DNA from: Phenylobacterium sp.
GTDB lineage: Bacteria > Pseudomonadota > Alphaproteobacteria > Caulobacterales > Caulobacteraceae
Reading direction: 5' to 3'
DNA length: 41,110 nt
Assembly (NCBI GenBank): GCA_003136395.1
Contig: PLEH01000019.1
Location: 1 to 41,110 of the forward strand
In this document: positions 1 through 16,731 of the stretch, piece after piece
Numbering within the stretch: the stretch's first letter is position 1
Layout of the letters: each line of letters begins with the position of its first letter
Made by a program: the position numbers and the translations under genes
The notes under the pieces: generated by a model
Databases searched by the model: none
What the model saw: the letters and a program-made list of their open reading frames with translations, nothing else
What the model was told of the DNA's origin: nothing

Positions 1-102
1 AGAGAAGCACGAGCCCCGTGCGGCGACCTCAACCCGGCGAGCTCACCAACAAAGGGAGCTGGCAATGCGATGATCCAATCGTGATTGACTGGAGCCGCGA
101 TA

Positions 103-177
103 GAGAAGCGGTCTTAGCCGACCTTCCCGAAAGCGGACTCCGCTAGGGTCGGGATCGGGGGGAAACCGGACGTTGGC
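103..177. repeat. GTCCGCTTT-type palindromic repeat, copy A
   Basis: A degenerate copy of a dispersed repeat whose units read GCGGTC...CCCGAAAGCGGAC...GGGGGGAAA-CCGGAC; related copies lie at 3534-3626, 7830-7938, 13636-13780 and 14384-14435. It lies just past the 3' end of the minus-strand gene at 206-1024. The first 205 bases otherwise hold no gene I can defend: an open plus-strand frame runs from the window edge to a TAG at 144-146 inside the repeat, and it could be the tail of a gene that starts outside the window, but it matches nothing I recognise. Confidence 0.6.
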
Positions 178-205
178 GGCTAGGCCTGGGCGGCAGCCAT
201 TGGCC

Positions 206-1024
206 TTACTTGAGCGCCTCGTTACGGAGGCCCATAACGTCCATGTCACCACCTCCGAAGGAGCGTATCGGCGCTGCCAAGGTTGCTGAGTTCTCGTCCC
301 CGCCAGGTGTGAAGTCCCTCGGAATGGGCTTGCAAAGCGGTCCGGACATCACCATTCGCCCGATCGCCTGAATGCCATCGGTCCGAGCCGCCTCAAGCTG
401 GGCCCGCGGAAGCAGCTCTGTCTGCAGCGCGAACGTCTCGATGCGCTCTGCACTTACCCGCAGGCCGTTGGCTTGCTCTCGGGCGTCATAGACCGCCCGG
501 CGGAGCGCAGCGACCTCCTCACGGCTGATTTGCCGTGCCGGACCCCCCATCGCCCGGAGCGTTTCCCACTGCTCCGACAGTTGGACGGCGGACTTGTTGG
601 CGCCTTCGACGGCCAAGGCGAGGCCCGAGAGGCTGATCTGCTCACGATTGGACATGTGTCCGAGTACCTGGCCGTACGTCAGCGCCGACCAGCTGCGCAA
701 CACCCAGGAGGCGCGTCCCAAGCGAGGTATGTGACCAACGTCTGGCAGCCGACCGGTGGTCTGCGCCTGTTCGAGGAGCTTTTCGATCTCATCGAGCCGC
801 GCGCCGACACAGGGAGTTACGGCCTGCTGCGCCCCGTCCCATGCCAAGGTGCGCGTCATGTCGAAAGTGAGAGACTGACGGGCCACCTCAACCTGATGCT
901 GCCAATGCAACCATTCAGCGCCCTGCTCGGCGCCCAGCGCGGTCAGCACGCCGACTACGATGATGACGTACTCCTTCAGGAATTCCCGAAGGCCATGCCA
1001 GGGCTTGGGTTTGTGGAGGTCCAT
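206..1024 (-). CDS. Hypothetical membrane-anchored protein, MDLHKPKPWHG family
   Basis: A 272-residue protein of unknown function. The N-terminus MDLHKPKPWHGLREFLKEY is followed by one hydrophobic segment (about residues 19-33), then a long, mostly helical region without a catalytic motif that I recognise. This suggests a protein anchored by its N-terminus. The next gene upstream (1035-1557) begins with nearly the same 35 residues, so the two are tandem paralogues. The start is 11 bp after that gene's stop, and the TPR gene lies before it, so all three are probably co-transcribed. The strong conservation of the first 35 residues compared with the rest suggests that the N-terminus is the functional signature. 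No function is claimed. Confidence 0.75.
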   Translation of the reverse strand: MDLHKPKPWHGLREFLKEYVIIVVGVLTALGAEQGAEWLHWQHQVEVARQSLTFDMTRTLAWDGAQQAVTPCVGARLDEIEKLLEQAQTTGRLPDVGHIPRLGRASWVLRSWSALTYGQVLGHMSNREQISLSGLALAVEGANKSAVQLSEQWETLRAMGGPARQISREEVAALRRAVYDAREQANGLRVSAERIETFALQTELLPRAQLEAARTDGIQAIGRMVMSGPLCKPIPRDFTPGGDENSATLAAPIRSFGGGDMDVMGLRNEALK

Positions 1025-1034
1025 GGCGGGTTCC

Positions 1035-1557
1035 TCAGCCCGCCCAGTCGGCGGGCACGTCCTTGACGCAGGCCGCGCCGTAGCGGTCGCGCGCGCGGCC
1101 CAGGAACAGCTTCATGCGCGTCGCATCCAGCGGCCCCAGCTTGCGGATCTCCGGCAGGACCCATGCGGCTGCGCGCCACATGCTGTACTCCTGCACGCGC
1201 AGGGCCTCGACGGCGTCCAGCACGTGGGCCTGCTCCGCCTCGCTCAGAGCGCCGCCGCTGTGGCGCAGCGCGTGCAACCGCCCGACCGCCTGGGCCTCCT
1301 CGGCGTTCGTCCGCTCCATGTAGGGCATCATCGAATAGGCCTTGGTCCAGATGGCCGCCGCACCCTGGGACATGTGGTCGGCCACCCCGGCATGGGTGGC
1401 GTCGTCGTGCGCCAGGGTGTCGTAGGACAGGCGCCCACTCCAGGCGCTCCACCGCCTGCTCGCCGCCGAGCGCGGTCAGCACGCCGACGACGATGATCAC
1501 GTACTCCTTCAGGAACTCGCGGACGCCGTGCCACGGCTTGGGTTTGTGGATGTCCAT
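1035..1557 (-). pseudogene. Frameshifted paralogue of the MDLHKPKPWHG-family gene
   Basis: The reading frame starts MDIHKPKPWHGVREFLKEY at 1557, 5 bp after the TPR gene's stop, and runs through the same hydrophobic segment to about residue 41 (...VERLEW). It then leaves frame. The homologous continuation (RLSYDTLAHDDATHAGVADH..., ending ...VPADWAG at 1035) is in another frame, and 523 bp is not a multiple of three. Against the paralogue at 206-1024, roughly 8-12 residues are missing at the break near 1425-1440, so a small deletion with loss of frame explains it better than a single-base error. Without the break it would be a protein of about 174 residues. A sequencing error or programmed shift cannot be excluded. 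Confidence 0.7.
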
Positions 1558-1562
1558 CGCCG

Positions 1563-3452
1563 TCAGACCTTCTGCGCCGCGAGTTCGGCACGTTCGGCCA
1601 AGGTAAGGTCTAGGGCAGCGGCGGTGGCAAACTGCGCTCTCGCCTCGGCGGCCTTGCCCTGCTTCGCCAGCGCCTCGCCCCACTTCAGGTGGAGGCGACC
1701 CCAGCGGGGGGCAAAGTGCTGAGCTTCGGCGAACTTCGCCGCTGCGGCCTTGGCGTCGCCCTTGGCCAGCAGGGCCTCGCCCCAGGCCTCCAGCGGGTCG
1801 GCCCACCGCGGCGCCGAAGCGCTGGCCGCTTCGAAGTCGGCGCGGGCGGGCTCGACCTCGCCGCGCGCCAACCGCACACGCCCTCGCCTGACGAGAACAT
1901 CGGGCTGCTTCGGATCGAGCCTGAGGGCGGCGGCGAACTCGCGTTCGGACCGCGCCGGGTCGCCTTCCAGCGCGGCGACCACGCCGCGGACGCCGAAGCA
2001 AGGTACGCAATCGGCGGGCAGGGTCCGGCCTATGGCGTCGGCCTCGGCGAAACGGTCCAGGCGGGCGAGCGCTTCCATCCGGCCGGCCTGCGGCGCCGGC
2101 TGGGCGAGGACCAGGGCCGAGTCGGGCCTGGCGTTCCAGTCGCGAATGACGGCTGGCCAATCCTCCAACGCCGCGTCCAACCGCGTGTTGGGGATGTCCA
2201 TGATCGCCCGCGACGACGGGTCGTGAATGAAGGCGAGTTGAAGTGCGTAGTCGCGATGAGAGTCGCCACCTCTGCCGGCGAGGTGGCGGCGCATGATGGG
2301 ACGAATGAGGTCGGCCGAGCCCCGGTAGTCACTAAGCAGATACAGGCCCTTCGATTGCCATGCGTCCAGGTCGGCGGCGTTCGCCCGGGTCCGCGGAACC
2401 TGCGAAATCAGCTCCATGCTGCGGCGGGCCGCGGCCCGAGCCGCCGCCGTGTGCCCGAGCAGCAGTTCGGCGTTGGACAGATTGCCCGCGCCAACGGCCG
2501 CCAGCCGCCGGTCCGGCGACGCCGTCGTCGCCTGGAAATGAGGGATCGCCTTCGCGAGATGGCCCTCCTCCTCGTCGATGAGGCCCAGCAGGTCTTCCGC
2601 AAGGCTGATCTGCGCCGCGTCGTCGCTGGCAGCGAGCAACGTGTCGAGAAGGCGCCGCGCGTCGTCCAGCCGGCCCTGGCGGGCCGCCCCTTCCGCCACC
2701 CGGGCCTGACGGATGTAGAGTTCGGCGACGATGTTCGGGCGCGCTTTGGCGAAGATCTGCTCAGCGACCTTGCCGGTGAGCGCGGCGAGTTGGTCGGGCG
2801 GGCCTTCGGCGGTCGCGGTCTCACCCAACTCCGTGCGGGCGATGACCTTCAGACCCGTGGGCGTCTTCAGCACCTCGCCGGAGAGGTGGGTCTCATGGCC
2901 CAGCCAATCGCGAAGGGCCTTCTGCACCTCGCCTAGCGACAGACCCGTCTCGGGCAACTCGATCTTCGTGCCTTGAGTAAACGCGTCGGACGTCTTTACC
3001 TCGAACAGCGAGTTGGCGCCGCGGTCGAGTTCGCGGAGGTAATCCAGCACCTCGCGCGCTACGACCGGGCCGGTGGCGCCTTGTGCGGCGAGGTCCGGCG
3101 GGACGGAGAAGGCCTCAACGACCAGGCCGTCGGCGTGGGCGGCGTCCCAGGCCATCCAGGCCAAGCCGCCAGCCACCGCCAGCCCGAGTGCGATGGTCAT
3201 GGCCTGCAGCGCCAGCCGCAGGCGCTTGGACCAGCGGTCCAAGCCCATGTGGCGCATCTGTTCGTGCAGGTGGCGGCGCTGTTCGGCGATCAGGCCGCGC
3301 TGGTCTTCGAGGAAGCGGTCGGCGGCGTCATCTGTGCGTTTGCCGCCGCGCCGGGCCCGCACGCGCTCCAGGGCGACGCCGACGCCGGCGTTTTCGGTCT
3401 GGACGGCGGCTTCCGACGCAGCTTCGCCTTCAGCCTCCAGGAACTCCCCCAT
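1563..3452 (-). CDS. Membrane-anchored tetratricopeptide-repeat protein
   Basis: A 629-residue protein. Residues 1-78 are charged and probably cytoplasmic. One transmembrane helix follows (about 80-102, rich in Leu/Ala/Gly), then a periplasmic part. Residues from about 240 to the end form helical pairs rich in Ala, Leu and Arg, with TPR-like periodicity (for example the units ending ...AWGEALLAKGDAKAAAAKF and ...LKWGEALAKQGKAAEARAQF). TPR arrays hold protein partners; no enzyme domain is visible. The ATG at 3452 is preferred to the GTG three bases upstream because GGGGGAG at 3461-3467 is at better spacing from it. It is the first gene of a three-gene minus-strand operon with the two MDxHKPKPWHG paralogues, whose hydrophobic N-termini suggest they share the membrane with it. 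Confidence 0.8.
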   Translation of the reverse strand: MGEFLEAEGEAASEAAVQTENAGVGVALERVRARRGGKRTDDAADRFLEDQRGLIAEQRRHLHEQMRHMGLDRWSKRLRLALQAMTIALGLAVAGGLAWMAWDAAHADGLVVEAFSVPPDLAAQGATGPVVAREVLDYLRELDRGANSLFEVKTSDAFTQGTKIELPETGLSLGEVQKALRDWLGHETHLSGEVLKTPTGLKVIARTELGETATAEGPPDQLAALTGKVAEQIFAKARPNIVAELYIRQARVAEGAARQGRLDDARRLLDTLLAASDDAAQISLAEDLLGLIDEEEGHLAKAIPHFQATTASPDRRLAAVGAGNLSNAELLLGHTAAARAAARRSMELISQVPRTRANAADLDAWQSKGLYLLSDYRGSADLIRPIMRRHLAGRGGDSHRDYALQLAFIHDPSSRAIMDIPNTRLDAALEDWPAVIRDWNARPDSALVLAQPAPQAGRMEALARLDRFAEADAIGRTLPADCVPCFGVRGVVAALEGDPARSEREFAAALRLDPKQPDVLVRRGRVRLARGEVEPARADFEAASASAPRWADPLEAWGEALLAKGDAKAAAAKFAEAQHFAPRWGRLHLKWGEALAKQGKAAEARAQFATAAALDLTLAERAELAAQKV

Positions 3453-3533
3453 CACGCCACTCCCCCAATGCGGTCATGGGATGCCAATGCACGGCTACCG
3501 TCAACGCGACACTCAGCGCGCGGGTCATAGCCC

Positions 3534-3626
3534 TGAACGTCCGCTAAGGGTCGAAAGCGGTCTTAGGCTTCTTGCCCGAAAGCGGACCCGCTGAATGTCA
3601 GCTCCGGGGGGAAAGCGGACATTGCC
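3534..3626. repeat. GTCCGCTTT-type palindromic repeat, copy B
   Basis: Contains inverted units GTCCGCTaa/GGGTCGAAAGCGG and CCCGAAAGCGGAC. Bases 3548-3620 (73 bp) are identical to 7859-7931 in copy C and in the same orientation, so the two form a direct repeat around the lanthipeptide locus. The surrounding gap 3456-3924 holds no intact gene; it contains this repeat, a scrap resembling the start of the MDIHKPKPW genes and a TetR remnant. Confidence 0.8.
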
Positions 3627-3650
3627 AGGGCTTGAGTATGTGGATGCGCC
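3621..3650 (-). pseudogene. Possible relic of a third MDIHKPKPW gene start
   Basis: Read on the minus strand, this stretch gives ATCCACATACTCAAGCCCTGG (21 bases, written here only to show the match in its parts ATCCAC and AAGCCCTGG). The start of the gene at 1557 reads ATCCACAAACCCAAGCCGTGG over the same span, about 18 of 21 bases equal. The match ends where repeat copy B begins, as if the repeat replaced the rest of the gene. The start codon is not conserved. The match is short and chance is possible. Confidence 0.25.
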
Positions 3651-3768
3651 CGCGAGTAGGTGACTGCCGGCGAGATCGCCAGCTGCCGCATTGCCCTAGA
3701 TGAAATGGCGATGGACAAGCGTCGTTCCAGGCTTGCCCCACCTCGTCAGGCTCGCCGTCGCCTACACC

Positions 3769-3912
3769 TTACGGGAATCTGCCCCGGCTACCACCCAGGG
3801 CATGGGCCAACTGGGCCACCGAGGCGCCCAGAAAGCTGCCCCACGCATAGAGCGCGGGCCGCCGCCTCGACGATCGCCGCGCCTCGTAGTCGGCCGCCTG
3901 CGTGCGCGCCAT
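3769..3912 (-). pseudogene. Remnant of a TetR/AcrR-family regulator (N-terminus only)
   Basis: From the ATG at 3912 the frame gives MARTQAADYEARR, a typical TetR-family opening. The next expected helix, AIVEAAAR, is present but in another frame; then the first frame resumes with LYAWGSFLGASVAQLAHALG, which matches the helix-turn-helix core of TetR proteins. It stops at 3769 right after the recognition-helix region (GGSRGRFP). Two compensating frame changes plus loss of the whole ligand-binding domain mark it as dead. It lies 12 bp downstream of the lanthipeptide precursor gene, on the same strand, and may be a lost local regulator or a fragment left by rearrangement. The TetR assignment rests on sequence pattern only. 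Confidence 0.6.
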
Positions 3913-3924
3913 CACGCCTTCGCC

Positions 3925-4203
3925 TCAAACGCAGCTCTCGTGTGTATTTCTGAGGAACATCGCCGCCATCCCACCCACGGCGATGTCAAGGTCGGCATCC
4001 AGCATCTCGTCCGCGGGCGCGGGCAGGACCAGATGCACCTTCGTCGCGGTGTCCTCGACGACCTCTATCGTGACGCCTTTGGGAACTTCCACGCCCGCGC
4101 CTTTCAGGGTGCCGGCCGGATCGGCCAGCAGCCGCTTGCGGAAGGCCGGATCGCTCATGGCCTGCCCGATCACTCGGGACTGGGGGTCTGGTGCGGGAGA
4201 CAT
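3925..4203 (-). CDS. NHLP-leader (proteusin-type) lanthipeptide precursor
   Basis: A 92-residue precursor. Residues 10-62 match the nitrile-hydratase-alpha-like leader (NHLP) pattern: SDPAFRKRLLADPAGTLK, then a GVEVPKGVTIEVVEDTATKV segment and the HLVLPAP strand typical of that family. The leader ends DLDIAVGG (Gly77-Gly78), a double-glycine cleavage site. The predicted core is MAAMFLRNTHESCV, with one Cys (C91), one Thr (T87) and one Ser (S90). LanM would dehydrate Thr/Ser and join one of them to the Cys; a T87-C91 methyllanthionine ring is geometrically reasonable, whereas S90 is adjacent to C91. GGAG lies just upstream of the ATG. The gene diverges from lanM at 4390. Leader and GG are seen directly; the modification is inferred from the neighbour. 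A non-product NHLP protein is the main alternative. Confidence 0.85.
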   Translation of the reverse strand: MSPAPDPQSRVIGQAMSDPAFRKRLLADPAGTLKGAGVEVPKGVTIEVVEDTATKVHLVLPAPADEMLDADLDIAVGGMAAMFLRNTHESCV

Positions 4204-4389
4204 ATCCGTTCTCCAGAATGGATGGGATTTGCTGCTGGATTCTCAGGAACGCGCGCGCTCATCTCTATCGAAACGTCAAAGCAACGCCTTACAGGCGGAT
4301 CAGTCAAGGTTGCACGCGACAACTGGAGGATCACCGGGGTAGCGTTGCGGCCTGTTCTACTCGGCCGGCGCGGTGACGAAGCTTCCATC
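4204..4389. promoter_or_regulatory. Divergent promoter region between precursor and lanM
   Basis: These 186 bp separate the two divergent start codons and must carry both promoters unless transcription enters from outside. On the minus strand TTGACG (reading from about 4278) could be a -35 element for the precursor, but no good -10 follows. No convincing operator palindrome was found. Confidence 0.4.
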
Positions 4390-7300
4390 ATGAGCCCATC
4401 GACTTTGTCCGACGACGACGTTCGCGATATCGCCGGGCGAGCCAGCACGATCGACGAGCGCCTGGCGGGCTTGGCCGTCGTCGCGCCGCCGGCCGATGAC
4501 GCCGGGCGCGAGCGGGATCAGCGGCTTTTTTCCGACTGGCGCGACGCCGCCACGGCCGGCGACGATGCGATGTTCGCCAAGAGGCTGCGACGCGACGGGC
4601 TGGACGAGCAAGCCGCGCGCGATCTGCTCGGCCCCGCGCAGCTGCCCGCCGGCTCGCCGCTGCCGGGATGGGCCGTCACCTTCCAACGGCTCGTCGCCGA
4701 AGCCGGCGAGCCGGCCTCGCCGCCCCCGCCGGGCGAGGACGCCGAGCCGGCGCCGTTCGAGGAGCTGCTGTGGCCGATGGTCGTTTCGGCGCGGCGGCTG
4801 TTGGCCGAGCGGGCGGGGGATGAAGCGGCGCGGCTTTTCGCGCCCTCCGCCATCGCCACCCTGGAGCGCAGCCTGCTGCTGCGGCTGGCCGCCCTGTGCG
4901 GTCCCGGACTGTTCGGCGACTTCAGTCTCTATCGCCACCTGGCGCGTCACCGGGGCGACCGGTTCTTCCTGCCCTTCTCCGCGCCCGGATCGCGGCTGAT
5001 CTACGAGGCCTATGTGGAGACCTGGCGCAGCGGCGGCAAGCGCGACTTCTTCCTGGCCCACCCGGTCGCCGCCCGGCTGATCGGCGTGGCGGTTTCCCAT
5101 TGGGTCGACAGCACGGCCGATCTGATCGCGCGGCTAGCGCGCGACCGCGCGGCGATCGGCGAGAGGTTTTCATCGGGCGACGAACCGGGCCTGGTGGAGG
5201 CTGTCGCGACCGATCTCTCCGACCCGCACCGCGGCGGCCGGACGGTGTCGATCCTGACCTTCGCCGGCGGACTGAAGGTGGTCTACAAGCCCAAGGACCT
5301 GCACATCGACGCCGCCTGGGCGAGCCTGGTGGACTGGATGGGCGACCACGCCGCGCCGGTGGCGCTGACGCCGGTGCGGGTGCTGGTGCGCGACGGCTAT
5401 GGCTGGTGCGAGTTCATCGCCGCCGACCAGAACAGGGCCGACAGGGACCAGGCGCTGTTCTACCGGCGGGCCGGCGGCCTGCTGGCGATGCTGCACCTGT
5501 TGCGGGCCTGCGATTTTCACCATGAGAACGTGATCTCCGCGGGGGGCTTCCCCGTCCCGGTCGATCTCGAAACCCTGGTGACGCCGGATCTGGCCAAGCC
5601 CGAGGGCGGCGAGCGCGCCGGCGCCGCGGCCGGCCTGGCCCAGTCGCTGTTGAACGACTCGGTGCTGACGACGCTCTATCTGCCGACCTGGGTGCTCGGT
5701 CCAGGCGGCTTGCTGAACATGATCGGCGGCATGGAGGAACGGGACGATCCGGGACTGACCTGGACGAGTTTTCGGGAGACCAACACCGACGCGATGGCCG
5801 TCGGGGGCGCCGTTTTCTCCGACGAGGGTGACTCGCCGCTCGGCTGGACGGCCCAGGTCGCCACACACTTCCGGGATTTCATGGGGGGCTTCGACGACCT
5901 CTACGCGTTTCTGGTCGCAAACCGCGCGGCGCTCCTCGAACCCGGCGGCCCGCTGGCGCCGTTTCGCAACGTCGTGATCCGCGTCCTCCTCAGGGACACC
6001 CGCACCTACGGGCTGGTCCAGCGGCGCGCGCGCGCCTATGGCGCCCTCACCGACGGCGCGGCCTGGAGCCTGAATTTCGACTATCTGCTGCGCGGGGACA
6101 CGATCGTCGAGATGGCGCCTGCAACCTGGGCGATGCGCGCGGCCGAGCGCGAGGCCGCGGCCGCCTGCGACATCCCGATGTTCACCGCGCGCACCGACGC
6201 CACTTGGCTGGAGGCCGCGCCGGGCCGGCGGATCGAATCCAGCCTCGCGGCGGCGCCGTTCGAGCGGGTCCTGGCGCGGGTCCGGCGGCTCGGCGACGAG
6301 GACCGTGCGTTCCAGGCGCGGATCATCAGCAGCACGATCGCCCCGCCCCGCGACGAACAGGCCGAACCCCCGGCCGCCCGCGACGACGGGCCGGATCCGA
6401 CGGCTTCGGATCTGACGGCCCCCGATCTGACAAAGATGGCGATCCGGCTCGGCGATATCGTGGACGCCGCCGCGATCCGCGCCGGCGACGGCGCCGCCTG
6501 GTACGGCCTCGTCCCGCTCGATCACGACCACCTGCAGGTCTCGGTGCTGGGCCTCGACCTGATGAGCGGCACGACCGGCATGGCGCTGTTCTGCGCCGCC
6601 CTGGCGCGGGTCACCGGAGAAGCGCGGTTCCGCGATCTGGCGCTCGCCGCGACGGCGCCGGCGCGCGCGGCCCTGACGTCCGACGTGCGCCGGCTCAACG
6701 CCAAGGCGCTGGGGCTCGGCGGCGGCCTGGGTCTCGGATCGATCATCTATGGCCTGGTGCGCGTGGGCGGATTGCTGGACGAGCCCAGCCTGCTGGAGGA
6801 GGCCCGCGCGATCGCCGGCCTGATCGACGCCCCGCTGATCGAGGCCGACCGTTCGGCCGACGTGATCCTGGGCGCCGCGGGCGCCATCCTGGGCCTGCTC
6901 GTCCTCCATCGCGCCACCGGCGACGCCGCGGCGCTGGCCGCCGCCGCCGCCTGTGGCCGGCATCTGCTGGCCATCCGCGTCCCCGACCCGAATGGCGATC
7001 TCGGCTGGGGGTCGCCGCGGACCTACCAGGGCCGCCACCTGACCGGGTTTTCCCACGGCGCCGCCGGCTTCGCCCTGGCCCTGCTGCGGCTCTACCGGGC
7101 CACCGGCGACACCGCGTTTCGCGCCGCCGCCGAGGACGCCTTGGCCTATGAGCGCAAGCTGTTCATGCCCGACGTCAACAACTGGTCCGATTTCCGCTAC
7201 CGCCCTCCGCCCGACGGCGCCCAAAGGGCGTGCCAGTGGTGCCACGGCGCCACCGGCATAGGCCTGGCGCGGGTCGGTTGCCTGGACCTGATCGACGACA

Positions 7301-7629
7301 GCCATATTTGCGAGGAGATCGAGGCCGCGCTGTCGTGCACTCTGGCGACGGCGACCAATAACCTCGACCACATGTGCTGCGGCAATTTCGGCCGGTTCGA
7401 CTTTTTGTTCACGGCCGGGCTGCGGCTCGATCGGCCCGATCTGGTGGCCTCCGCGCGGGACGGCGCGAGCGCTCGCGTCGCGCAGGCCACGGCGCGCGGA
7501 GAGTTCTTCTGGGGCAGCGGCGACGACCGGATGAATCCCGGCTTCTTCCAGGGCGTCTCCGGCATCGGCTATGAACTGCTGCGGCTCACCGCGCCCGAGA
7601 TCCTACCGTCGGTGCTGCTCTGGGACTAA
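4390..7629 (+). CDS. lanM: Class II lanthipeptide synthetase LanM, CCG type
   Basis: A 1079-residue bifunctional enzyme that would phosphorylate and dehydrate Ser/Thr in the precursor core and then add Cys to make (methyl)lanthionine. The N-terminal DUF4135 dehydratase (about 130-600) has a kinase-like site: K301 in VVYKPKDL, D375/H377/N380 in CDFHHEN, D392/E394 in VDLETL, and RDTRTYG near 535-541. The C-terminal LanC cyclase (about 715-1079) has FSHGAAG (887-893) and zinc ligands C951 (WCHG) and C996-C997 (MCCG). Two adjacent Cys instead of Cys-His place it with the three-Cys (ProcM-like) group. The frame is open further upstream, but the ATG at 4390 gives the usual family length and leaves room for a promoter. 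The partner precursor diverges at 4203. No LanT exporter or protease is nearby. Confidence 0.93.
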   Translation: MSPSTLSDDDVRDIAGRASTIDERLAGLAVVAPPADDAGRERDQRLFSDWRDAATAGDDAMFAKRLRRDGLDEQAARDLLGPAQLPAGSPLPGWAVTFQRLVAEAGEPASPPPPGEDAEPAPFEELLWPMVVSARRLLAERAGDEAARLFAPSAIATLERSLLLRLAALCGPGLFGDFSLYRHLARHRGDRFFLPFSAPGSRLIYEAYVETWRSGGKRDFFLAHPVAARLIGVAVSHWVDSTADLIARLARDRAAIGERFSSGDEPGLVEAVATDLSDPHRGGRTVSILTFAGGLKVVYKPKDLHIDAAWASLVDWMGDHAAPVALTPVRVLVRDGYGWCEFIAADQNRADRDQALFYRRAGGLLAMLHLLRACDFHHENVISAGGFPVPVDLETLVTPDLAKPEGGERAGAAAGLAQSLLNDSVLTTLYLPTWVLGPGGLLNMIGGMEERDDPGLTWTSFRETNTDAMAVGGAVFSDEGDSPLGWTAQVATHFRDFMGGFDDLYAFLVANRAALLEPGGPLAPFRNVVIRVLLRDTRTYGLVQRRARAYGALTDGAAWSLNFDYLLRGDTIVEMAPATWAMRAAEREAAAACDIPMFTARTDATWLEAAPGRRIESSLAAAPFERVLARVRRLGDEDRAFQARIISSTIAPPRDEQAEPPAARDDGPDPTASDLTAPDLTKMAIRLGDIVDAAAIRAGDGAAWYGLVPLDHDHLQVSVLGLDLMSGTTGMALFCAALARVTGEARFRDLALAATAPARAALTSDVRRLNAKALGLGGGLGLGSIIYGLVRVGGLLDEPSLLEEARAIAGLIDAPLIEADRSADVILGAAGAILGLLVLHRATGDAAALAAAAACGRHLLAIRVPDPNGDLGWGSPRTYQGRHLTGFSHGAAGFALALLRLYRATGDTAFRAAAEDALAYERKLFMPDVNNWSDFRYRPPPDGAQRACQWCHGATGIGLARVGCLDLIDDSHICEEIEAALSCTLATATNNLDHMCCGNFGRFDFLFTAGLRLDRPDLVASARDGASARVAQATARGEFFWGSGDDRMNPGFFQGVSGIGYELLRLTAPEILPSVLLWD

Positions 7630-7645
7630 GGCGTCGCTGGGAGAT

Positions 7646-7682
7646 AGTCCGCGTCGGACTCTATGGCCCTCCCCGTGGGCCA
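7646..7682 (+). terminator. Two small hairpins downstream of lanM
   Basis: Seventeen bases after the lanM stop, AGTCCG (7646-7651) pairs with CGGACT (7655-7660) across a 3-base loop; then TGGCCC (7664-7669) pairs with GGGCCA (7677-7682) across 7 bases. There is no T-run, so intrinsic termination is uncertain. Confidence 0.3.
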
Positions 7683-7722
7683 CTCTCAGCCTCTGCTCAC
7701 TGGCAGTCGGCGCACCGGGTCG

Positions 7723-7740
7723 CAAGATCGCGCGATCTTG
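7723..7740. promoter_or_regulatory. Perfect 18-bp palindrome CAAGATCGCGCGATCTTG
   Basis: An exact palindrome in the gene-free stretch 7630-8085, between two converging genes. It could be an operator, a bidirectional terminator stem or part of a mobile element; no protein that would bind it is evident. Apart from this, the hairpins at 7646-7682 and repeat copy C, I see nothing in the stretch. Confidence 0.35.
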
Positions 7741-7829
7741 CCCATTCCTGGTGTCGGCCTCTGGAACGAATCCAACAATTCTTGCCACTTTTCGACCAAA
7801 ACGCGGTCTTCCAACCGCGGATGGTTTCC

Positions 7830-7938
7830 CCGAAACGGACTCTCCGAAGGTCCGCTTTGGGTCGAAAGCGGTCTTAGGCTTCTTGCCCGAAAGCGGACCC
7901 GCTGAATGTCAGCTCCGGGGGGAAAGCGGACGTTGGCG
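7830..7938. repeat. GTCCGCTTT-type palindromic repeat, copy C
   Basis: Contains the hairpin GTCCGCTTT-GGGTCG-AAAGCGG and two further AAAGCGGAC units. Bases 7859-7931 are identical to 3548-3620 in copy B, same orientation. An imperfect unit (CGAAACGGAC) precedes it at 7831-7840. Confidence 0.8.
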
Positions 7939-8085
7939 CCCCGACCCTCTTTGCGTTGCGAGGTTACAATCCCCGCTTAAGAAGCCGGTAGAGAGTTGGG
8001 TCGCGCAGGATGTCCATCTCCTCCTGTGGCGGAACGCGACGCCGGGGAGCATCCCCATCGGGGGCATGCGGCGCATTGATGCGGA

Positions 8086-11000
8086 TCAGGCGTCGCCGGG
8101 ACTTTCCCAACTCGCCGCGACGGCCAGGCGGATCAGTTCGGACAGCGACTTCGCGCCAGTCTTCGTCATGATCGCCGCGCGGTGGCCCTCGACGGTGCGC
8201 TGGCTGATCCCGAGGTCGCTGGCGATGATCTTGCTCGGTTGGCCCGCGAGGACCATGTCGAGGATTCGGCGCTGGCGCACGGTGAGGCCGGCCAGCCGCG
8301 CCGCGCTTTCCGCGCTTTGCGCACGCGAGGGGGCGACCTGGCGGGACCGCGCCAGTGTGCGCTCGATGCTGGCAAGCAGTTCCTTCTCCCCGACCGGCTT
8401 CTCGATGAAGTCGAGGGCGCCTGCGCGCAGAGCGTCGACCGCCATGCTGACATCGCCGTTGCCCGTGATCACGATGGCCGGCAGCTGGTAGCCGGCGGCC
8501 TGGAGGCGTTCCAGTAGCGCGACGCCGCCCATGCCGGGCATCATGGCGTCGACCAGCAAGACGCCCCTGGCGTCGGCGCGGTGGGCGGCAAGGAACGCTT
8601 CGGCGCTGGCGAAGTCCTCGACCGCTCGGCCCCCGGCTCTCAGGAGGTCGCGCAGCGTTTCGCGCAAGGCGTTGTCGTCGTCGACCAGGAAGATGACCTC
8701 GTCATGCGCAGCGACGGCGACCGGGGACGGCGGCGAGGCGTGATCCGGCGCCGTCGACAGGCTGGTCGCCAGCAGGCGTCGCACGAGATGGCTCAAATCG
8801 TCGGTGGCCACGGGCTTGGTGCGATGGTCGTACCCTTGGGCTGCGATTTCGCGCAGGGTGCCCGTCGATATGTCCCCGGTCAGGATCAGCGCCGGCACGG
8901 CGCGTCCGAGCGTCGGGCGAAGGCGCGCCAGAACCTGCAGGCCGGTCAAGTCCCTCGGCAGGTTGTAGTCGACAATTAGCAGGTCCGGACGAAGACCCTC
9001 TCGCTCCACGAGCCGGATCGCATCTTCGCCGTCGATGGCGGAATTGATCCGATAGCCTTCAGCCTTCAGGAAAAGTTCGAGCGACTCCCGCAGGCTTGGA
9101 TCGTCCTCCACGATAAGGATCGAGCCATCCTGTTGGGCAATTTCGGTCAGCTCCACGGCCGCGCCCTTGGGCGCCAGGCGCGCCCCGGCCGGTGTCAGCG
9201 GGACATCTATGGAGAACGTCGACCCGCGGCCCTCTCGTGAGCGGGCATCGACCTCAAGCCCCAGCAGATCGGCCAGCCGTTGGACTATGGCCAGTCCAAG
9301 ACCCAGGCCGCGGCTCAGCTCGCGCGCCGGATTATCGACCTGGTGGAACTCTTCGAATATCGCGCGCAGCTGGCCGGCTGGAATGCCGAGGCCGGTGTCG
9401 TGAACCTCGATCCGCAGCATTCCACCGCGGCGGCGGCAGCCGAGCAGGATCTTGCCTTTGTGCGTGTACTTCACCGCATTGGAGAGCAGATTCCGCACCA
9501 TCTGGTCTAAGAGGCGAGGATCTGTGCGGATCACGTGCGAGCACGGACTCACCCGCCAATCGAGCCCCTTGGCCTTGGTGTGGTAGCCGAACTCCGTCTT
9601 CAGGCTTTCGAGCAGGTCGTTGACCGGGAAATCGGTGATTTCCGGGCGGATCACGCCGGCTTCCAGCTGATTGATGTCGAGCAGCGTGTTGAGCATGCCT
9701 GACATCGCCATCAGCGCCTCATCACAGCGGGCGATCAGTTGCAGCGCCTCGCTGTCCTTGATCTTCTTCGCCAGCACGCCCTGCAGCAGGCTAAGCGTCT
9801 GCAACGGCTGGCGCAGATCGTGGCTGGCGGCGGCGAGGAACCGTGACTTGCCCAGGTTCGCGCTCTGGGCGTGGGCCTTGGCCGCGTTCGCCAAGTCTTC
9901 GGCGCGCTTTCGCGCGCTGATGTCGGCGAAGGTGATCACCACCCCTTCGATGCGGTTGTCCTTGGTCCGATAAGGCAGGGTCCTGCAGTTGAACCAGGCT
10001 CCGCTCTCGGCTTGAATCTCGCGGGTGACCGGCGCCAGGGTCGAGAGTACGGCGCGTGCGTCGCGCAACAGGGTCGGGTTGGCGAAGTGGTGCACGAGAT
10101 CGGTGAGCGGGCGGCCGACGTCCGAAGCGATCACGCTGAACAGCGCCTTGGCCGCCGGCGTGAAGAAGCGGATGTTGAGATCCGCATCGAGGAAGATCGT
10201 CGCCAGGTCGGAGCTGATGAGGATGTTCTGCAGGTCGTCCGCGGTGGCCCGTTGCTGGGTCAGGGTCTCCTGGAGCTGTCCGTTGAGCGCGGTGAGCTCC
10301 TCGTTCAGCGACTGGAGCTCCGCATGTGACGTCTCAAGTTCCTCGTTGGTGGTCTGGAACTCCTCGTTGACCGACATCGCTTCTTCGTTGATCGCGCGAA
10401 TTTCTTCCTCGGCGATTTCGCGATCCCGGATAGCGTCCTCGAGCTCCTTGCGGGTCGCTTCCAGTTCTTCCTCAACGCGGGCGGAATGTGACGTCTCGGC
10501 GGGCGCCTCGGGCGGCGTTTCGGCTTCGACCTTCGCCTGCGGCTGATCCACGAAACTGAGGAGAACCATCTCCTGGCCGGCATTGGTCACCGCTCGCGCG
10601 GAGACGTTCACGGCGACAAAGCCGCCGTTACGCCTTACCCGTCTTGCGAGGACGGTCCGGTCCTCATCTCCGGTCGCGGTTTCGAGCAAGGTCCGGATCG
10701 TCGGGCGCAATCCCTCCCGCGCCGCGGCGAGCACATCGAGATTGGGTTCTCCGGTGGGCATCTTCAGATAGAGGTCGGTCGGGCCAAAGTAGTAGAGCCC
10801 CTGGCGCCTTCGATTGACCAGGACCGACGCCGGCGCAAAACTCTTGAGCAATAGCCGCTGTGCGAAGTCCCCGAGGCTCCCGTGCGATTCAGTTGTCGGA
10901 CGCGGAGGTCGCGACCATAGGGTCCGCGCCGCCTCGCCACGTCCAAGAGGTAAGTCGATATCGCCAGGCCGGCTTCGGCCAATATGGCGAAAGACGCGGT

Positions 11001-12462
11001 GCGCCTTGGAAATCGGATCGAAACGGTCGCCGGCCGCGCCAACCGTTTCAGATCCGCCAAGGAACAGAACACCGCCCTCGCCGAGCGCGAAATGGAACAG
11101 CGAAATGACCTTCTGCTGAACCTCTGGCCGCAGATAGATCAAGAGATTGCGGCAACTTACGAGGTCCAGCCGCGAGAATGGCGCGTCGGCCACGACGTCG
11201 TGCACCGAGAAGACAATCGAGTCGCGCAGCTCTCGCGAGACCCGAAAGCCACGGTCTTCGCGCACGAAGAAGCGGCTGAGGCGCTCGGCGGGCACATCTG
11301 CCTCGATCGCCTGCGCATAGAGCCCTTCGCGCGCAAAGGCGACCGCCTCGGCATCGACGTCGGTTGCGAAGATCTGCAGCCTGATGCTCCGGCGGGTTTT
11401 CGCGATCTCGTCGAGGAGGAGCATGGCGATCGAATAGGCTTCTTCCCCAGAACTGCAGCCAGCCACCCAAACCCGGATGGGCTGGTTCGGAGGTTGGGTG
11501 CGCACCATCTCCGGAATGACCTTTTCCTCGAGCAGTTCGAAGGCCTTGGCGTCACGGAAGAACCGCGTGACGTTGATCAGCAGGTCGTCGGCAAGGCGCT
11601 GGAGTTCCGTCGCGTCCTGGGTCAGCTTTTCCAGATACCGGTGACCGTCTTCGATGCCGTGCAGGGCCATCCGCCGCTCGATCCGGCGCTTCTGGGTGCC
11701 TTCCTTGTAGAGGGCGAAGTCGTGGGGCGTCTTCTTGCGCAGCAGATCGATGATCTGCGCGAAGGTGTCTTCCGCCGGAGAGGCGGCGCCCTGCGGAGAC
11801 TGCAGGTATCGATGACCGCCGTATCGGGCCAGGGCCTTGGGGATTTCCGCCAGCGGAAGCACCAGGTCCACGGCGCCAGCGGCGATGGCGCTTCGCGGCA
11901 TCCCGTCATACTCGGCCTCCTCCGGATCCTGGGCGACGACCAAGCCCCCCGCCGCCTTGACCGCGGCGGCGCCGAGCGTGCCGTCGTTCGCGGTTCCCGA
12001 CAGGATGACGCCGACAGCGCGCTCACCGAATTCATCGGCCAGGGATTGCAGCAGGAAATCGAATGGCATTCGCAGGGCCGGTCTGCGGGGCGGGCTGGAG
12101 AGCCGGATTGCGCCATCACGGATCGCCAAAAACTTGCCTGGCGGGATGACGTAGACATGGTCCGGTTCGAGCCGGGCGGCGTCCGTCGCCTCGACGATCG
12201 GCATGGCGAGATGCGGTGACAGCAGTTCGACCATCATGCTGACATGCGTTGGGTCGAGATGTTGCACGATCAGAAAGCCCATGCCGCTCCTGGCGGGCAA
12301 CGCGCCGAAGAGCGTGCGGATAGCTTCCAGGCCACCGGCCGAGGCGCCGACGCCAACCACGGGAAAGTTGACCTGGGGCTTGGTGGTCCGCGTTGCGCGA
12401 CGCGCGCGCTTGGACCCGTCCCGATGACCAGCGTTACCCGTTGGCGAAATACGCTTCACCAT
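8086..12462 (-). CDS. CheB-CheR-PAS-histidine kinase-REC-REC-LuxR fusion
   Basis: A 1458-residue signalling protein with whole pathways in one chain. Domains: CheB methylesterase (about 33-215; S41 in GASAGG, H68 in QHLD, D160 in GTANDG); CheR methyltransferase (about 230-495; SAM site WVAGCSSGEEAY, SCRNLLIYL); a PAS-like segment (about 535-640); a coiled coil rich in Glu (about 660-745); PAS (745-855); HisKA with H881 in AASHDLRQPL; HATPase with N991/N995, DTGLGIP and GLGLGLAIV; receiver 1 with D1165; receiver 2 with D1305; and a FixJ/LuxR-type HTH (about 1390-1450, LTVRQRRILDMVLAG...GISQRTVEGHRA). No transmembrane segment is seen. CheB-CheR-PAS-kinase chains are known; here a FixJ-like regulator with a DNA-binding domain is joined to the same chain. 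The ATG at 12462 is preferred to a TTG at 12525. A receiver-only gene lies 104 bp upstream. Confidence 0.92.
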   Translation of the reverse strand: MVKRISPTGNAGHRDGSKRARRATRTTKPQVNFPVVGVGASAGGLEAIRTLFGALPARSGMGFLIVQHLDPTHVSMMVELLSPHLAMPIVEATDAARLEPDHVYVIPPGKFLAIRDGAIRLSSPPRRPALRMPFDFLLQSLADEFGERAVGVILSGTANDGTLGAAAVKAAGGLVVAQDPEEAEYDGMPRSAIAAGAVDLVLPLAEIPKALARYGGHRYLQSPQGAASPAEDTFAQIIDLLRKKTPHDFALYKEGTQKRRIERRMALHGIEDGHRYLEKLTQDATELQRLADDLLINVTRFFRDAKAFELLEEKVIPEMVRTQPPNQPIRVWVAGCSSGEEAYSIAMLLLDEIAKTRRSIRLQIFATDVDAEAVAFAREGLYAQAIEADVPAERLSRFFVREDRGFRVSRELRDSIVFSVHDVVADAPFSRLDLVSCRNLLIYLRPEVQQKVISLFHFALGEGGVLFLGGSETVGAAGDRFDPISKAHRVFRHIGRSRPGDIDLPLGRGEAARTLWSRPPRPTTESHGSLGDFAQRLLLKSFAPASVLVNRRRQGLYYFGPTDLYLKMPTGEPNLDVLAAAREGLRPTIRTLLETATGDEDRTVLARRVRRNGGFVAVNVSARAVTNAGQEMVLLSFVDQPQAKVEAETPPEAPAETSHSARVEEELEATRKELEDAIRDREIAEEEIRAINEEAMSVNEEFQTTNEELETSHAELQSLNEELTALNGQLQETLTQQRATADDLQNILISSDLATIFLDADLNIRFFTPAAKALFSVIASDVGRPLTDLVHHFANPTLLRDARAVLSTLAPVTREIQAESGAWFNCRTLPYRTKDNRIEGVVITFADISARKRAEDLANAAKAHAQSANLGKSRFLAAASHDLRQPLQTLSLLQGVLAKKIKDSEALQLIARCDEALMAMSGMLNTLLDINQLEAGVIRPEITDFPVNDLLESLKTEFGYHTKAKGLDWRVSPCSHVIRTDPRLLDQMVRNLLSNAVKYTHKGKILLGCRRRGGMLRIEVHDTGLGIPAGQLRAIFEEFHQVDNPARELSRGLGLGLAIVQRLADLLGLEVDARSREGRGSTFSIDVPLTPAGARLAPKGAAVELTEIAQQDGSILIVEDDPSLRESLELFLKAEGYRINSAIDGEDAIRLVEREGLRPDLLIVDYNLPRDLTGLQVLARLRPTLGRAVPALILTGDISTGTLREIAAQGYDHRTKPVATDDLSHLVRRLLATSLSTAPDHASPPSPVAVAAHDEVIFLVDDDNALRETLRDLLRAGGRAVEDFASAEAFLAAHRADARGVLLVDAMMPGMGGVALLERLQAAGYQLPAIVITGNGDVSMAVDALRAGALDFIEKPVGEKELLASIERTLARSRQVAPSRAQSAESAARLAGLTVRQRRILDMVLAGQPSKIIASDLGISQRTVEGHRAAIMTKTGAKSLSELIRLAVAASWESPGDA

Positions 12463-12565
12463 GGTGCGGCCCCCGAGAAAACCCGCAGAACGCCTCCGCC
12501 TCTCGGCCAAGGTCCACACCGCCAAGTAGTATATGTCGGCGCGGGCTATTCAATAGGGTAGGGCT

Positions 12566-12967
12566 TCATCGGCCTGTGGGGGCGGGTCCCGCACGAGGCA
12601 GGAATGCGGCGGCCATCGCCTTTTCCAGCCGCTGCGCGTCGAAGGGTTTGCTCAGGCAGGGCGCCCGCGCCAGCAGGGCGGGAAGACAGCCCGGGCTTCT
12701 ACCGCCGGTCGTCAGGATGAAGGGGATTTCGCGCGACGCCAGTTCGGCCGCCGCCGGAAGAATGTTCGCATCACCGAGATGAATGTCGAGCAGCGCGGCG
12801 TCGAAGCCGCCAGCCTCAATCGCACTCATCACCTCGTCGAGCTCGGCGACCGGACCCATGGCAACGCACCCTAGACCCACCAGGATCTCGCGCAGCGACT
12901 CGCCGATGATCCAGTTGTCCTCGGCGATGAGGACCCGCAGGCCTTGAAGGGTGTCGGTGACGTTCAT
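12566..12967 (-). CDS. Single-domain response regulator (REC only)
   Basis: A 133-residue stand-alone receiver. Acidic pocket E16-D17 (LIAEDNW), phospho-acceptor D61 in ALLDIHLGD, T86/T87 in ILTTGG and K107 in LSKPFD are all present, so it should be phosphorylated. It has no output domain, so it would act by binding a partner or as a phosphate sink. It is transcribed in the same direction as the large hybrid kinase that starts 104 bp downstream, so a shared transcript and phosphotransfer from that kinase are plausible but unproved. The ATG at 12967 (MNVTDTLQG) fits the family start better than codons upstream. Confidence 0.9.
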   Translation of the reverse strand: MNVTDTLQGLRVLIAEDNWIIGESLREILVGLGCVAMGPVAELDEVMSAIEAGGFDAALLDIHLGDANILPAAAELASREIPFILTTGGRSPGCLPALLARAPCLSKPFDAQRLEKAMAAAFLPRAGPAPTGR

Positions 12968-12992
12968 GGGCCCCTGGAGAGAAATCAGCAGA

Positions 12993-13010
12993 CCTCCCGG
13001 TCGCGGGAGG
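12993..13010 (-). promoter_or_regulatory. Hairpin in the leader of the receiver gene
   Basis: CCTCCCG (12993-12999) pairs perfectly with CGGGAGG (13004-13010) across GTCG, 26-43 bases upstream of the receiver's ATG. It could affect transcript stability or translation. The rest of the gap 12968-13299 holds the divergent promoters for the receiver and the small gene at 13300, plus a second hairpin CTGTCG...CGACAG near 13201; I see no gene there. Confidence 0.3.
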
Positions 13011-13299
13011 AACCGGCGACCCAATCCGGGCCCCCTCCGGTCGCGGTCAGCCTATCCGATCCGTCAAGGCCGTCTGAATGATCCATATCAAGCGACGCCA
13101 CCGAATTCGCCGGCTCGGGATGCCTTTGCTCGCAGGCCCGTGGAACGACCGGGATACGGGGGTAAGGCGTCGTTGCGCCGCGAAACACGTAGATTCCGAG
13201 GCTGTCGGGCCCGGCGACAGAGCGTCATTGTGAAACAGTCGGCGAAGGATGTGCGGCCGAGAAGGCGGTGATCGCGTCGGACGAGGGAGGCCTTGGCAG

Positions 13300-13527
13300 A
13301 TGCAGAAATTCATAGCACGGGCGAACGTCGCGCGTTTTGAAGCCCTCATCGCTGGCGAGCCCGATGAAGCGAAGCGGCAGCTTTTAGAGCAGATGCTCGG
13401 TCGCGAGAGGGAGACGTTGAATGGCCTCGGGGATGCTGGTGTTGCGGCGGTGGCGAAGGGTGACCATCATGCCCCGGCCCCAGTGCCCCAGTTGCGGCGC
13501 GGCGGCCTCGAACGGCCTGCTGACTGA
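13300..13527 (+). CDS. Small conserved alphaproteobacterial protein (MQKFIARANVARFEALI)
   Basis: A 75-residue protein. The first 40 residues (helical, MQKFIARANVARF..., DEAKRQLLEQMLGRERE) resemble short proteins common in alphaproteobacteria that begin with a RANI/RANVxxF motif followed by a KRxxLxxLLxxE helix; I know of no function for them. The rest, from about residue 42, is rich in Ala and Pro and may not be conserved. GGGAGG lies 10 bases upstream of the ATG. It stands alone and diverges from the receiver gene. Confidence 0.6.
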   Translation: MQKFIARANVARFEALIAGEPDEAKRQLLEQMLGRERETLNGLGDAGVAAVAKGDHHAPAPVPQLRRGGLERPAD

Positions 13528-13635
13528 AGGCGCGGCGAGCGACGCTTGAGCTAGACCCTGCATCAGATCCCACTCAAGCATGCTCCGCCAACTTCCTCTC
13601 TTTGCCCGATGCTGAACTGGAAATTCGATCTCTTC

Positions 13636-13780
13636 AATGTCCGCAATGGGTCCTAGGCGGACATCTGGCGTCATCCCGAAGCGGACTCACCGAAGGTCCG
13701 CTTTGGGTCGAAAGCGGACATAGGCTCCTTTCCCGAAAGCAGACCCCGCGAAAGGCAGGATCGGGGCAAAGCGGACCTAG
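13636..13780. repeat. GTCCGCTTT-type palindromic repeat, copy D (multi-unit)
   Basis: Several units in a row: ATGTCCGC...GCGGACAT (13637-13663), GTCCGCTTTGGGTCGAAAGCGGAC-type hairpin (13696-13719, stems GTCCGCTTT and AAAGCGGAC), then CCCGAAAGCAGAC and GGGGCAAAGCGGAC up to 13776. The stop of the DUF805 gene lies in CCTAG at its right edge. The gap between 13527 and 13777 holds nothing else. Confidence 0.75.
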
Positions 13781-14328
13781 TCTTGATGTGGTCGCACTGA
13801 TCGATCTGGCGAGGTGGGGATAAGTCCAGCAAGCTTCAGACTTGGCGGCTGAGGCCCAAAGCGATTTTCGCCGTCCTGCCCCTTTTGCAACCCAAGCCAA
13901 AGCGTAAAACTGTGCTGAATGAGGAGGCTAGCCAACACCGCCGCCATGTACCAAATTGTCCCTGAGGCAGTGTGGCCAGCGTCCTTGTTGAGCAGTTCGG
14001 CGGAATATCCGTCGCCGCCGAGTATGAAGCCCAACACTAGCGGTAGGCTGCTTAGAACAAGCACTGTGACTGCTAGCCACCCGCTTCTGCCGGTGTCGTG
14101 AAGGCGCCGCCAATACGCCATCAGCCACAAGATCAGGCTCACATCTCCCAGGGTGTCCGTATGAAGGACATAGGGGGAGCCATAGATAGCGACCAGGGTG
14201 AAGGCGACCCACAGCCAGTACTCGGCTTGGCCACTCCGCGTGCGCCAATATTTCACGAGGAACCTCAGACGCCCCGAGGCCCTCGGAAAAAGGGTCTCCT
14301 TTGCCCAGGCTAGAGGCAGCTCGCGCAA
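13777..14328 (-). CDS. DUF805 family inner-membrane protein
   Basis: About 183 residues, with four hydrophobic segments. The family hallmarks are FLVKYWRTRSGQAEYWLW near the start, the motif AYWRRLHDTGRSGWLAV in the middle and GQDGENRFGPQP near the end. DUF805 proteins are small integral membrane proteins of unclear function. No ATG precedes the first helix; the TTG at 14328 is chosen because GAGGAG ends 6 bases upstream. A longer frame reaching into repeat copy E is less likely. The C-terminal tail (...LIPTSPDRSVRPHQD) ends at a TAG at the edge of copy D, so repeats touch both sides of the gene and may have trimmed or replaced its ends. Confidence 0.75.
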   Translation of the reverse strand: MRELPLAWAKETLFPRASGRLRFLVKYWRTRSGQAEYWLWVAFTLVAIYGSPYVLHTDTLGDVSLILWLMAYWRRLHDTGRSGWLAVTVLVLSSLPLVLGFILGGDGYSAELLNKDAGHTASGTIWYMAAVLASLLIQHSFTLWLGLQKGQDGENRFGPQPPSLKLAGLIPTSPDRSVRPHQD

Positions 14329-14383
14329 TATCAACTCCTCGCTTTGGGCTGACGATAGGTTTGCGCTGTAGTCGCCCCCGCCG

Positions 14384-14657: not shown

Positions 14658-14675
14658 GTGGAAGCGGACCCGTTC

Positions 14676-16718: not shown

Positions 16719-16731
16719 CAAGTCTATGTTT

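What the first reader, a model, noticed from the sequence alone, without database searches (positions are those of the whole stretch)
3769..7629. Compact NHLP-leader lanthipeptide locus in a Caulobacterales-like genome
Seen: a 92-residue gene with an NHLP-type leader ending in GG and a short C-terminal tail, divergent from a LanM with intact dehydratase and cyclase sites. Known: NHLP leaders (proteusins) can be modified by LanM enzymes, as with the OspA/OspM landornamide pair. Inference: this pair makes a lanthipeptide. It is the strongest candidate here for an undescribed system.
Basis: partly seen in the sequence, partly recalled or inferred. Interest (0 to 1): 0.85.

Follow-up and report, generated by a model that had tools for sequence, protein, structure and literature searches.

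The report
Lanthipeptide gene pair with nitrile-hydratase-like leader
Two neighbouring bacterial genes encode a small peptide with a nitrile-hydratase-like leader and the enzyme that should close a ring in it, and database relatives of the peptide keep the leader almost unchanged while the end that becomes the product differs, which looks like a natural library of ring peptides.

Summary
Window 3925-4203 (-) encodes a 92-residue precursor that passes the NHLP model TIGR03793. Divergent from it, 4390-7629 (+) encodes a full LanM (TIGR03897, DUF4135, LANC_like) with conserved dehydratase residues. They are the only NHLP precursor over cut-off and the only LANC_like match found in this draft genome.

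(1) The cyclase zinc motif is CCG, as in substrate-tolerant ProcM, not CHG as in most NHLP-linked LanMs of one published survey. (2) The precursor has 36 database relatives. Leaving out one outlier, median pairwise identity is 0.79 in leaders and 0.30 in cores, barely above shuffled letters (0.28); all 37 cores differ. Our core, MAAMFLRNTHESCV, has one Cys; a Thr87-Cys91 ring is predicted.

No C39 exporter was found on this contig. An NHLM export set lies on another contig, beside its own short double-glycine peptides. A same-family genome joins NHLP precursors, a CCG LanM and an NHLM set in one locus; three other LanMs of the family are CHG and lack NHLP precursors.

Best reading: a class II lanthipeptide pathway of diversity-oriented type with an NHLP leader. 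New variant of a known kind; chemistry untested.

The parts
3925..4203 (-). NHLP-leader precursor peptide, 92 aa: leader residues 1-78 ending in GG, core 79-92 MAAMFLRNTHESCV
   Evidence: TIGR03793 65.9 bits vs cut-off 50.9; translation; 36 relatives
3928..3969 (-). predicted core (14 residues) with Thr87, Ser90, Cys91; the NTHESCV end is shared with P0122 from a Phenylobacterium MAG
   Evidence: cleavage after GG inferred from the double-glycine motif
4204..4389 (.). divergent intergenic region (186 bases, GC 0.575), presumed to hold both promoters
   Evidence: GC; no sigma-70-like site found by the simple scan
4390..7629 (+). class II lanthipeptide synthetase LanM, 1079 aa: dehydratase DUF4135 (residues 225-600) and cyclase LANC_like (719-1077), CCG zinc motif
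   Evidence: TIGR03897 703.5 bits, Pfam, alignment A2, motif
3535..3624 (+). dispersed intergenic repeat, left of the pair
   Evidence: repeat has at least 42 matches in the genome
7846..7935 (+). dispersed intergenic repeat, right of the pair, 96% identical to the left copy

Best explanation
A two-gene class II lanthipeptide pathway. The precursor's NHLP leader brings it to the LanM. The dehydratase domain phosphorylates and eliminates water from Thr87 (perhaps also Ser90). The CCG-type cyclase adds Cys91 to dehydrobutyrine-87, giving one methyllanthionine ring over THESC. A C39 peptidase-exporter encoded elsewhere then cuts after GG and exports the peptide. Across relatives the leader is held nearly constant while the core changes freely, so the LanM lineage is probably substrate-tolerant. 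Shown by sequence: both genes, their families, active sites, leader/core contrast. Inferred: pairing, ring position, trans export, tolerance. Function of the product: most likely a secreted antagonist or signal, a guess. The confidence given is for pairing and ring chemistry; tolerance is rated under the novel case.
For: Families over cut-offs. Active-site residues invariant in 21 of 21 rows. Only TIGR03793 match over cut-off in the genome (two weaker matches lie in one nitrile hydratase alpha frame, PF02979 300 bits) and only LANC_like match. CCG in 119 of 120 database LanMs listed, P0002 included; the other, P0016, was not read (mending 108 of 120 read by the narrower pattern). Leader versus core: 630 pairs of 36 sequences (our own included, outlier P0157 left out), median identity 0.79 versus 0.30. 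Of 135 pairs with leaders at least 85% alike, median core identity 0.33, against 0.28 for shuffled letters; 1 pair reached 0.7. Same-family G145 (L075): three NHLP precursors, CCG LanM, NHLM ABC1, ABC2 and HlyD together. NHLM set in the own genome over the cut-offs of TIGR03794, 03796 and 03797. Solved relatives: LicM2 443.7 and CylM 233.2 bits; NHLP leader chimera 8tb1 75.2 bits.
Against: No dehydration or thioether has been measured. The core has one Cys and two Ser/Thr, a small substrate; one of the 36 relatives (P0156) has no Cys. One precursor over cut-off in this genome, unlike ProcM hosts. Of 12 LanM loci inspected with the precursor profile (window, L075-L078, L083-L089), only the window and L075 show a clear NHLP precursor; L085 and L088 have weak hits, eight have none at E <= 1e-3. 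Six of those loci have a CCG LanM without a clear NHLP precursor, so CCG does not imply this leader; the other four are CHG, three of them (L076-L078) from the same family. The NHLM set on contig C62 has short GG peptides of its own and may not serve this precursor.
Confidence: 0.8

Rival explanations
1. Same chemistry, but one specialised product: a fixed one-ring peptide with no role for substrate tolerance. Core variability among relatives is then ordinary divergence between species.
For: One precursor over cut-off in the genome. P0122 from a Phenylobacterium MAG keeps NTHESCV, so this core end is conserved in at least one relative.
Against: Cores differ widely even where leaders are at least 85% alike: median 0.33 over 135 pairs. 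Several precursors share one longest-contig length (five at 2525 bases, two at 5937, two at 1117), as expected of arrays, though not shown.
Confidence: 0.3
2. The precursor is matured by another enzyme (for example YcaO cyclodehydratase or radical SAM), and the LanM acts on something else.
For: NHLP-type precursors also occur with YcaO enzymes (passages of PMC10783134) and radical SAM enzymes (landornamide epimerase OspD, passages of PMC10028609).
Against: Adjacent and divergent; only LANC_like protein and only NHLP precursor over cut-off in the genome; same-family locus L075 joins NHLP precursors and LanM. YcaO and radical SAM genes were not searched for in this genome.
Confidence: 0.07
3. 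A decaying remnant: a LanM locus that lost its exporter and partners and makes nothing.
For: No C39 exporter on this contig; no LanM in the 100 other genus genomes searched; repeat-rich surroundings.
Against: LanM open over 1079 residues with the catalytic residues kept; precursor intact and 80% identical to P0122.
Confidence: 0.1

Closest known systems
Prochlorosin system (ProcM/ProcA; SyncM/SyncA)
   Same: CCG zinc motif; strongly conserved leader with diverse cores. CCG and promiscuity of ProcM and SyncM from passages of PMC10027976 and PMC10783134
   Different: Leader is NHLP, not Nif11; closest named host is Phenylobacterium, not a picocyanobacterium; one precursor over cut-off in this genome, beside the LanM
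Landornamide (OspA/OspM/OspD/OspR)
   Same: Proteusin precursor whose lanthionine bridges are installed by OspM (passages of PMC10028609)
   Different: No epimerase or arginase hit among the window ORFs scanned, whereas OspM is reported to depend on the epimerase; one Cys in the core; zinc motif of OspM not compared
Roseocin-family and other NHLP/LanM clusters
   Same: NHLP leader, usually a single LanM, cores not conserved outside actinobacteria (passages of PMC10027976)
   Different: In that survey, which started from a CHG enzyme, NHLP precursors went with CHG LanMs, except two cyanobacteria with both motif types and both leader types; here the LanM is CCG
G145 locus in the same family (L075)
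   Same: NHLP precursors plus CCG LanM
   Different: Three precursors, a peptide-arginase-like gene and the NHLM export set in the locus; LanM 33-35% identical

Membership tests
Class II lanthipeptide synthetase (LanM) | TIGR03897 over its cut-off, DUF4135 plus LANC_like | tested here: met
   703.5 bits vs 304; PF13575 and PF05147
Class II lanthipeptide synthetase (LanM) | Dehydratase Lys/DxH/Asn/Asp residues and three zinc ligands | tested here: met
   K300, D375, H377, N380, D392, C951, C996, C997 invariant in 21 rows; CylM residues from passages of PMC4550811
Class II lanthipeptide synthetase (LanM) | Installs lanthionine in its partner peptide | not testable with these tools
   needs co-expression and mass spectrometry
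NHLP precursor (proteusin leader) | TIGR03793 over its cut-off, leader ends GG | tested here: met
   65.9 bits vs 50.9, residues 8-78
Prochlorosin (ProcM/ProcA) system | CCG-motif LanM | tested here: met
   HMCCGN at residues 994-999; CCG in 21 of 21 rows and 119 of 120 listed database LanMs
Prochlorosin (ProcM/ProcA) system | Nif11-type leader | tested here: not met
   four NCBIfam hits at E <= 1e-3, all NHLP or nitrile-hydratase related, none Nif11
Prochlorosin (ProcM/ProcA) system | Many precursors for one LanM in one genome | tested here: not met
   one TIGR03793 match over cut-off in the own genome, a 92% complete draft
Prochlorosin (ProcM/ProcA) system | Conserved leader with hypervariable cores | tested here: met
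   across database relatives, not within this genome: 0.79 vs 0.30, 135-pair test
Landornamide-type proteusin lanthipeptide | Epimerase and arginase in the cluster | tested here: not met
   no such hit among the window ORFs scanned, which include the neighbours on both sides; not every window ORF was scanned
NHLM export locus | NHLM ABC1/ABC2/HlyD next to precursor and LanM | tested here: not met
   C39 matches only on contigs C62 and C196; the only TIGR03796 match at 1e-150 in this genome is on C62, with ABC2 and HlyD beside it

The most novel reading that the evidence does not exclude
A diversity-oriented lanthipeptide system outside the cyanobacteria. Phenylobacterium-type bacteria use one CCG LanM lineage and one near-invariant NHLP leader to make a population-wide set of ring peptides whose cores turn over from strain to strain, some strains carrying arrays and this one a single cassette.
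Probability: 0.5. Interest if true: 0.65.

Novelty: new variant of a known kind. Interest (0 to 1): 0.5.

Why it matters
ProcM is prized because one enzyme closes rings in many peptides. One paper says that so far prochlorosin-like clusters are the only example that evolved a highly promiscuous CCG LanM for diverse lanthipeptides in marine cyanobacteria (PMC10027976, passage); the same paper also mentions archaeal CCG clusters. A further lineage with another leader family, in a Phenylobacterium-like host, would let one ask whether tolerance comes with the CCG site or with the leader, and would give another enzyme for making peptide libraries. I saw no paper tying this to Phenylobacterium or Caulobacter in the listings (2 papers; 0; 20 listed of 100; 20 listed of 24; 1). 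Only titles and starts of abstracts were seen there, and only open-licence papers are held.

Tried and rejected
Named-genome scan with the LanM alone: 31 pattern matches, none confirmed; only close relatives are found that way. With the precursor alignment: 16 NHLP loci from mostly other phyla, best identity 62% over a short segment, none close over the whole leader. Viral contigs: 55 pattern matches, none confirmed. Plasmids: 18 records, all under 60% identity. Rfam over window 1-15000: none. Promoter scan: none; one terminator-like site, chance level. The genus-level hits (22 genomes besides our own, frames of 440-605 aa, query residues 818-1069 only, 28-41% identity) are too short to be LanMs and were not identified.

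Genus-level precursor hits (29 of 101 genomes, our own included): apart from our own 105-aa frame, the listed frames are 212-510 aa, except one of 98 aa in G091 close to a contig end. Ten frames, nine from other genus genomes and one our own, were scanned and all are nitrile hydratase alpha; the rest are taken to be so by length.

Mobile-cassette idea: two repeats flank the pair, but the repeat has at least 42 matches in the genome (40 of 113 candidates scored), and no empty-site comparison was made because the left neighbour belongs to a multi-copy family (16 matches in the own genome). Set aside, not refuted.

Export link: I expected the C62 NHLM set to be the partner. Its ABC1 is no closer to that of G145 (44%) than to those of G079 (47%) and G017 (43%), and it has peptides of its own. 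The link stays a guess.

Contig length as linkage evidence: precursor and LanM of this window both show 65873, and P0004 with P0154 both show 3947. But P0033, only 37% identical, also shares 5937 with P0123/P0132, so coincidence may occur. Suggestive only.
Full report
What is there. The window is contig C218 of a draft genome of 4.9 Mb in 336 contigs, 92% complete. Between a TPR-repeat protein (1563-3455, minus) and a large hybrid histidine kinase (8086-12525, minus) lie two divergent genes. The first, 3925-4203 minus, is a 92-residue peptide whose residues 8-78 match the NHLP leader model TIGR03793 at 65.9 bits, over its cut-off of 50.9, and nitrile hydratase alpha in Pfam. The second, 4390-7629 plus, is a LanM of 1079 residues: TIGR03897 at 703.5 bits, DUF4135 and LANC_like.

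Is it the only one here? A search of the genome with TIGR03793 at E <= 1 gave three matches: this one over the cut-off, and two weaker ones in one 248-aa frame on C152. That frame is a nitrile hydratase alpha chain (PF02979, 300 bits). LANC_like matched once, this LanM. The genome is a draft, so further precursors may be missing.

Active sites. In an alignment of the LanM with 20 database relatives, K300, D375, H377, N380, D392 and C951, C996, C997 are invariant (positions checked). CylM uses K274, D347, H349, N352, D364 and zinc ligands C875, C911, H912 (passages of PMC4550811). From the DxH motif on, the dehydratase spacing is the same. The third zinc ligand differs: Cys here, His in CylM. 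That is the CCG motif, linked to highly promiscuous LanMs such as ProcM and SyncM (passages of PMC10027976; PMC10783134). A first, narrow pattern read CCG in 110, CHG in 3 and nothing in 19 of 132 entries, our LanM being counted twice among them. A wider pattern reads CCG in 119 of the 120 listed database proteins, P0016 being unread, and, among 12 LanM loci, CCG in eight (window, L075, L083-L088) and CHG in four (L076-L078 of the same family, and L089) (partial second look).

Leader and core. A search of 5.8 billion proteins found 36 relatives of the precursor among 46 candidates; the letters of all 36 were fetched. P0157 was left out of the pairwise counts as an outlier with 37% identity; 36 sequences including our own gave 630 pairs. 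Six of the relatives lack the first part of the leader and were kept. Median leader identity is 0.79, median core identity 0.30; all 37 cores differ, P0157 counted. In the 135 pairs with leaders at least 85% alike, median core identity is 0.33, one pair reaching 0.7, against 0.28 for shuffled letters; mean column entropy is 0.58 bits in the leader and 2.78 in the core. Cys is 12.9% and Thr 11.4% of core letters, against 0.1% and 6.2% in the leader. The database is clustered at 90% identity, which removes near-duplicates and so overstates diversity somewhat; it does not explain why the change sits in the core. Against a wholly free core: some cores fall into groups (P0142, P0143 and P0150; P0129 and P0135), and ours shares its last seven residues with P0122 from a Phenylobacterium MAG, which suggests selection on the ring region.

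Ring prediction. One Cys, Cys91, with Thr87 and Ser90 as possible partners. Ser90 is next to the Cys, so Thr87-Cys91 is the likely methyllanthionine (inference from spacing).

Kin loci. No LanM in the other 100 genomes of the genus (the 22 genomes with weaker hits match only part of the cyclase domain). In the family 5 of 390 genomes have a match at 1e-40, this genome included; in an order sample, which overlaps the family, 1 of 398, this one; in a class sample 9 of 385, this one included. Stretches were fetched around all four other family LanMs and around one LanM in seven of the eight other class genomes; G952 was left out. The precursor profile found in the genus nothing like our precursor: 29 of 101 genomes match, our own included, and the ten further frames scanned, one of them our own C152 gene, are nitrile hydratase alpha. 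In G145 of the same family (L075), three NHLP precursors, a protein matching the peptide arginase model below its cut-off (215 against 350 bits), a LanM, and NHLM ABC2, ABC1 and HlyD over their cut-offs lie together. The ten other LanM loci inspected (L076-L078, L083-L089) have no clear NHLP precursor within the stretches fetched; L085 and L088 have weak hits. So the pairing is seen twice in the family, both times with CCG, and is not general for such LanMs.

Export. Two C39 peptidase matches exist in the genome, on C62 and C196, none on this contig. C62 carries a full NHLM set over the cut-offs of TIGR03794, 03796 and 03797. Four small frames beside it end a leader-like stretch with GG (seen by eye, not tested), so that set may serve other peptides. 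The NHLM ABC1 model is matched at 1e-150 in 3 of 101 genus genomes, this one included, 2 of them over the cut-off. That the C62 set also processes this precursor is a guess.

Mechanism proposed. The leader docks on the LanM; Thr87 (perhaps Ser90) is dehydrated; Cys91 closes the ring; a C39 protein acting in trans cuts after GG and exports. Solved relatives by sequence: LicM2 and CylM for the enzyme, an NHLP leader chimera, a second NHLP leader and nitrile hydratases for the leader. No predicted fold was used.

Known or new. NHLP/LanM pairs are known. Class II families with NHLP leaders and non-conserved cores are described (passages of PMC7268733). One survey, begun from a CHG enzyme, found NHLP precursors with CHG LanMs, except for two cyanobacteria that have both LanM types and both leader types; it calls prochlorosin-like clusters the only example so far of a highly promiscuous CCG LanM for diverse lanthipeptides in marine cyanobacteria (passages of PMC10027976). 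It also notes that an earlier ProcM-based survey found varied leaders, so NHLP with CCG may have been seen before. I therefore call this a new variant of a known kind: NHLP leader, CCG LanM, hypervariable cores, Phenylobacterium-like host. The paper searches showed no description of it in the titles and abstract starts listed (lists capped at 20). Only open-licence papers are held.

Noticed in passing
L026 (G000:C62) 3570-13410: A separate NHLM export set (ABC1, ABC2, HlyD) with a cNMP-binding protein and four short frames ending leader-like stretches in GG (for example ...VELTVTQLDEVTGG); a methyltransferase with a regulatory domain lies farther off at 622-2010. G079 (L073) also has NHLM genes with small GG frames nearby. 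Looks like a second, non-NHLP peptide export locus.
   Followed up: partly
L075 (G145) 3651-17138: NHLP/LanM/NHLM locus in the same family with a peptide-arginase-like gene (NF052474, below cut-off) and three cores that begin Arg-Cys right after GG: a possible ornithine-bearing lanthipeptide, closer to landornamide than the window locus is.
   Followed up: partly
window 86-175, 3535-3624, 7846-7935, 13692-13781, 14384-14434: Dispersed intergenic repeat; at least 42 matches in the genome to the copy at 7846. The two copies flanking the pair are 96% identical; the next best match to the right copy is 84%.
   Followed up: partly
G000:C152:34506-34913: A nitrile hydratase alpha gene whose two halves both match the NHLP leader profile, so a relative of the leader's presumed ancestor is present in the same genome.
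   Followed up: partly
window 29664-40980: Cell wall and division cluster: MraZ, MraW, a transpeptidase, Mur ligases, FtsW-type protein, a family 28 glycosyltransferase. Ordinary.
   Followed up: yes
window 922-1027 and 1455-1560: A 106-base direct repeat, 89% identical, at the starts of two related reading frames (MDLHKPKPWHG and MDIHKPKPWHG): a small duplicated gene family of unknown function.
   Followed up: no
L085 (G1039) 7623-11778: A LanM that reads in two overlapping frames beside a small peptide with a weak NHLP match and a Cys-rich end; a frameshift, an assembly error or a split gene.
   Followed up: no
L007-L025 (19 loci; 22 genus genomes in all): Frames of 440-605 aa that match only the cyclase part of the LanM at 28-41% identity; family not identified.
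   Followed up: no
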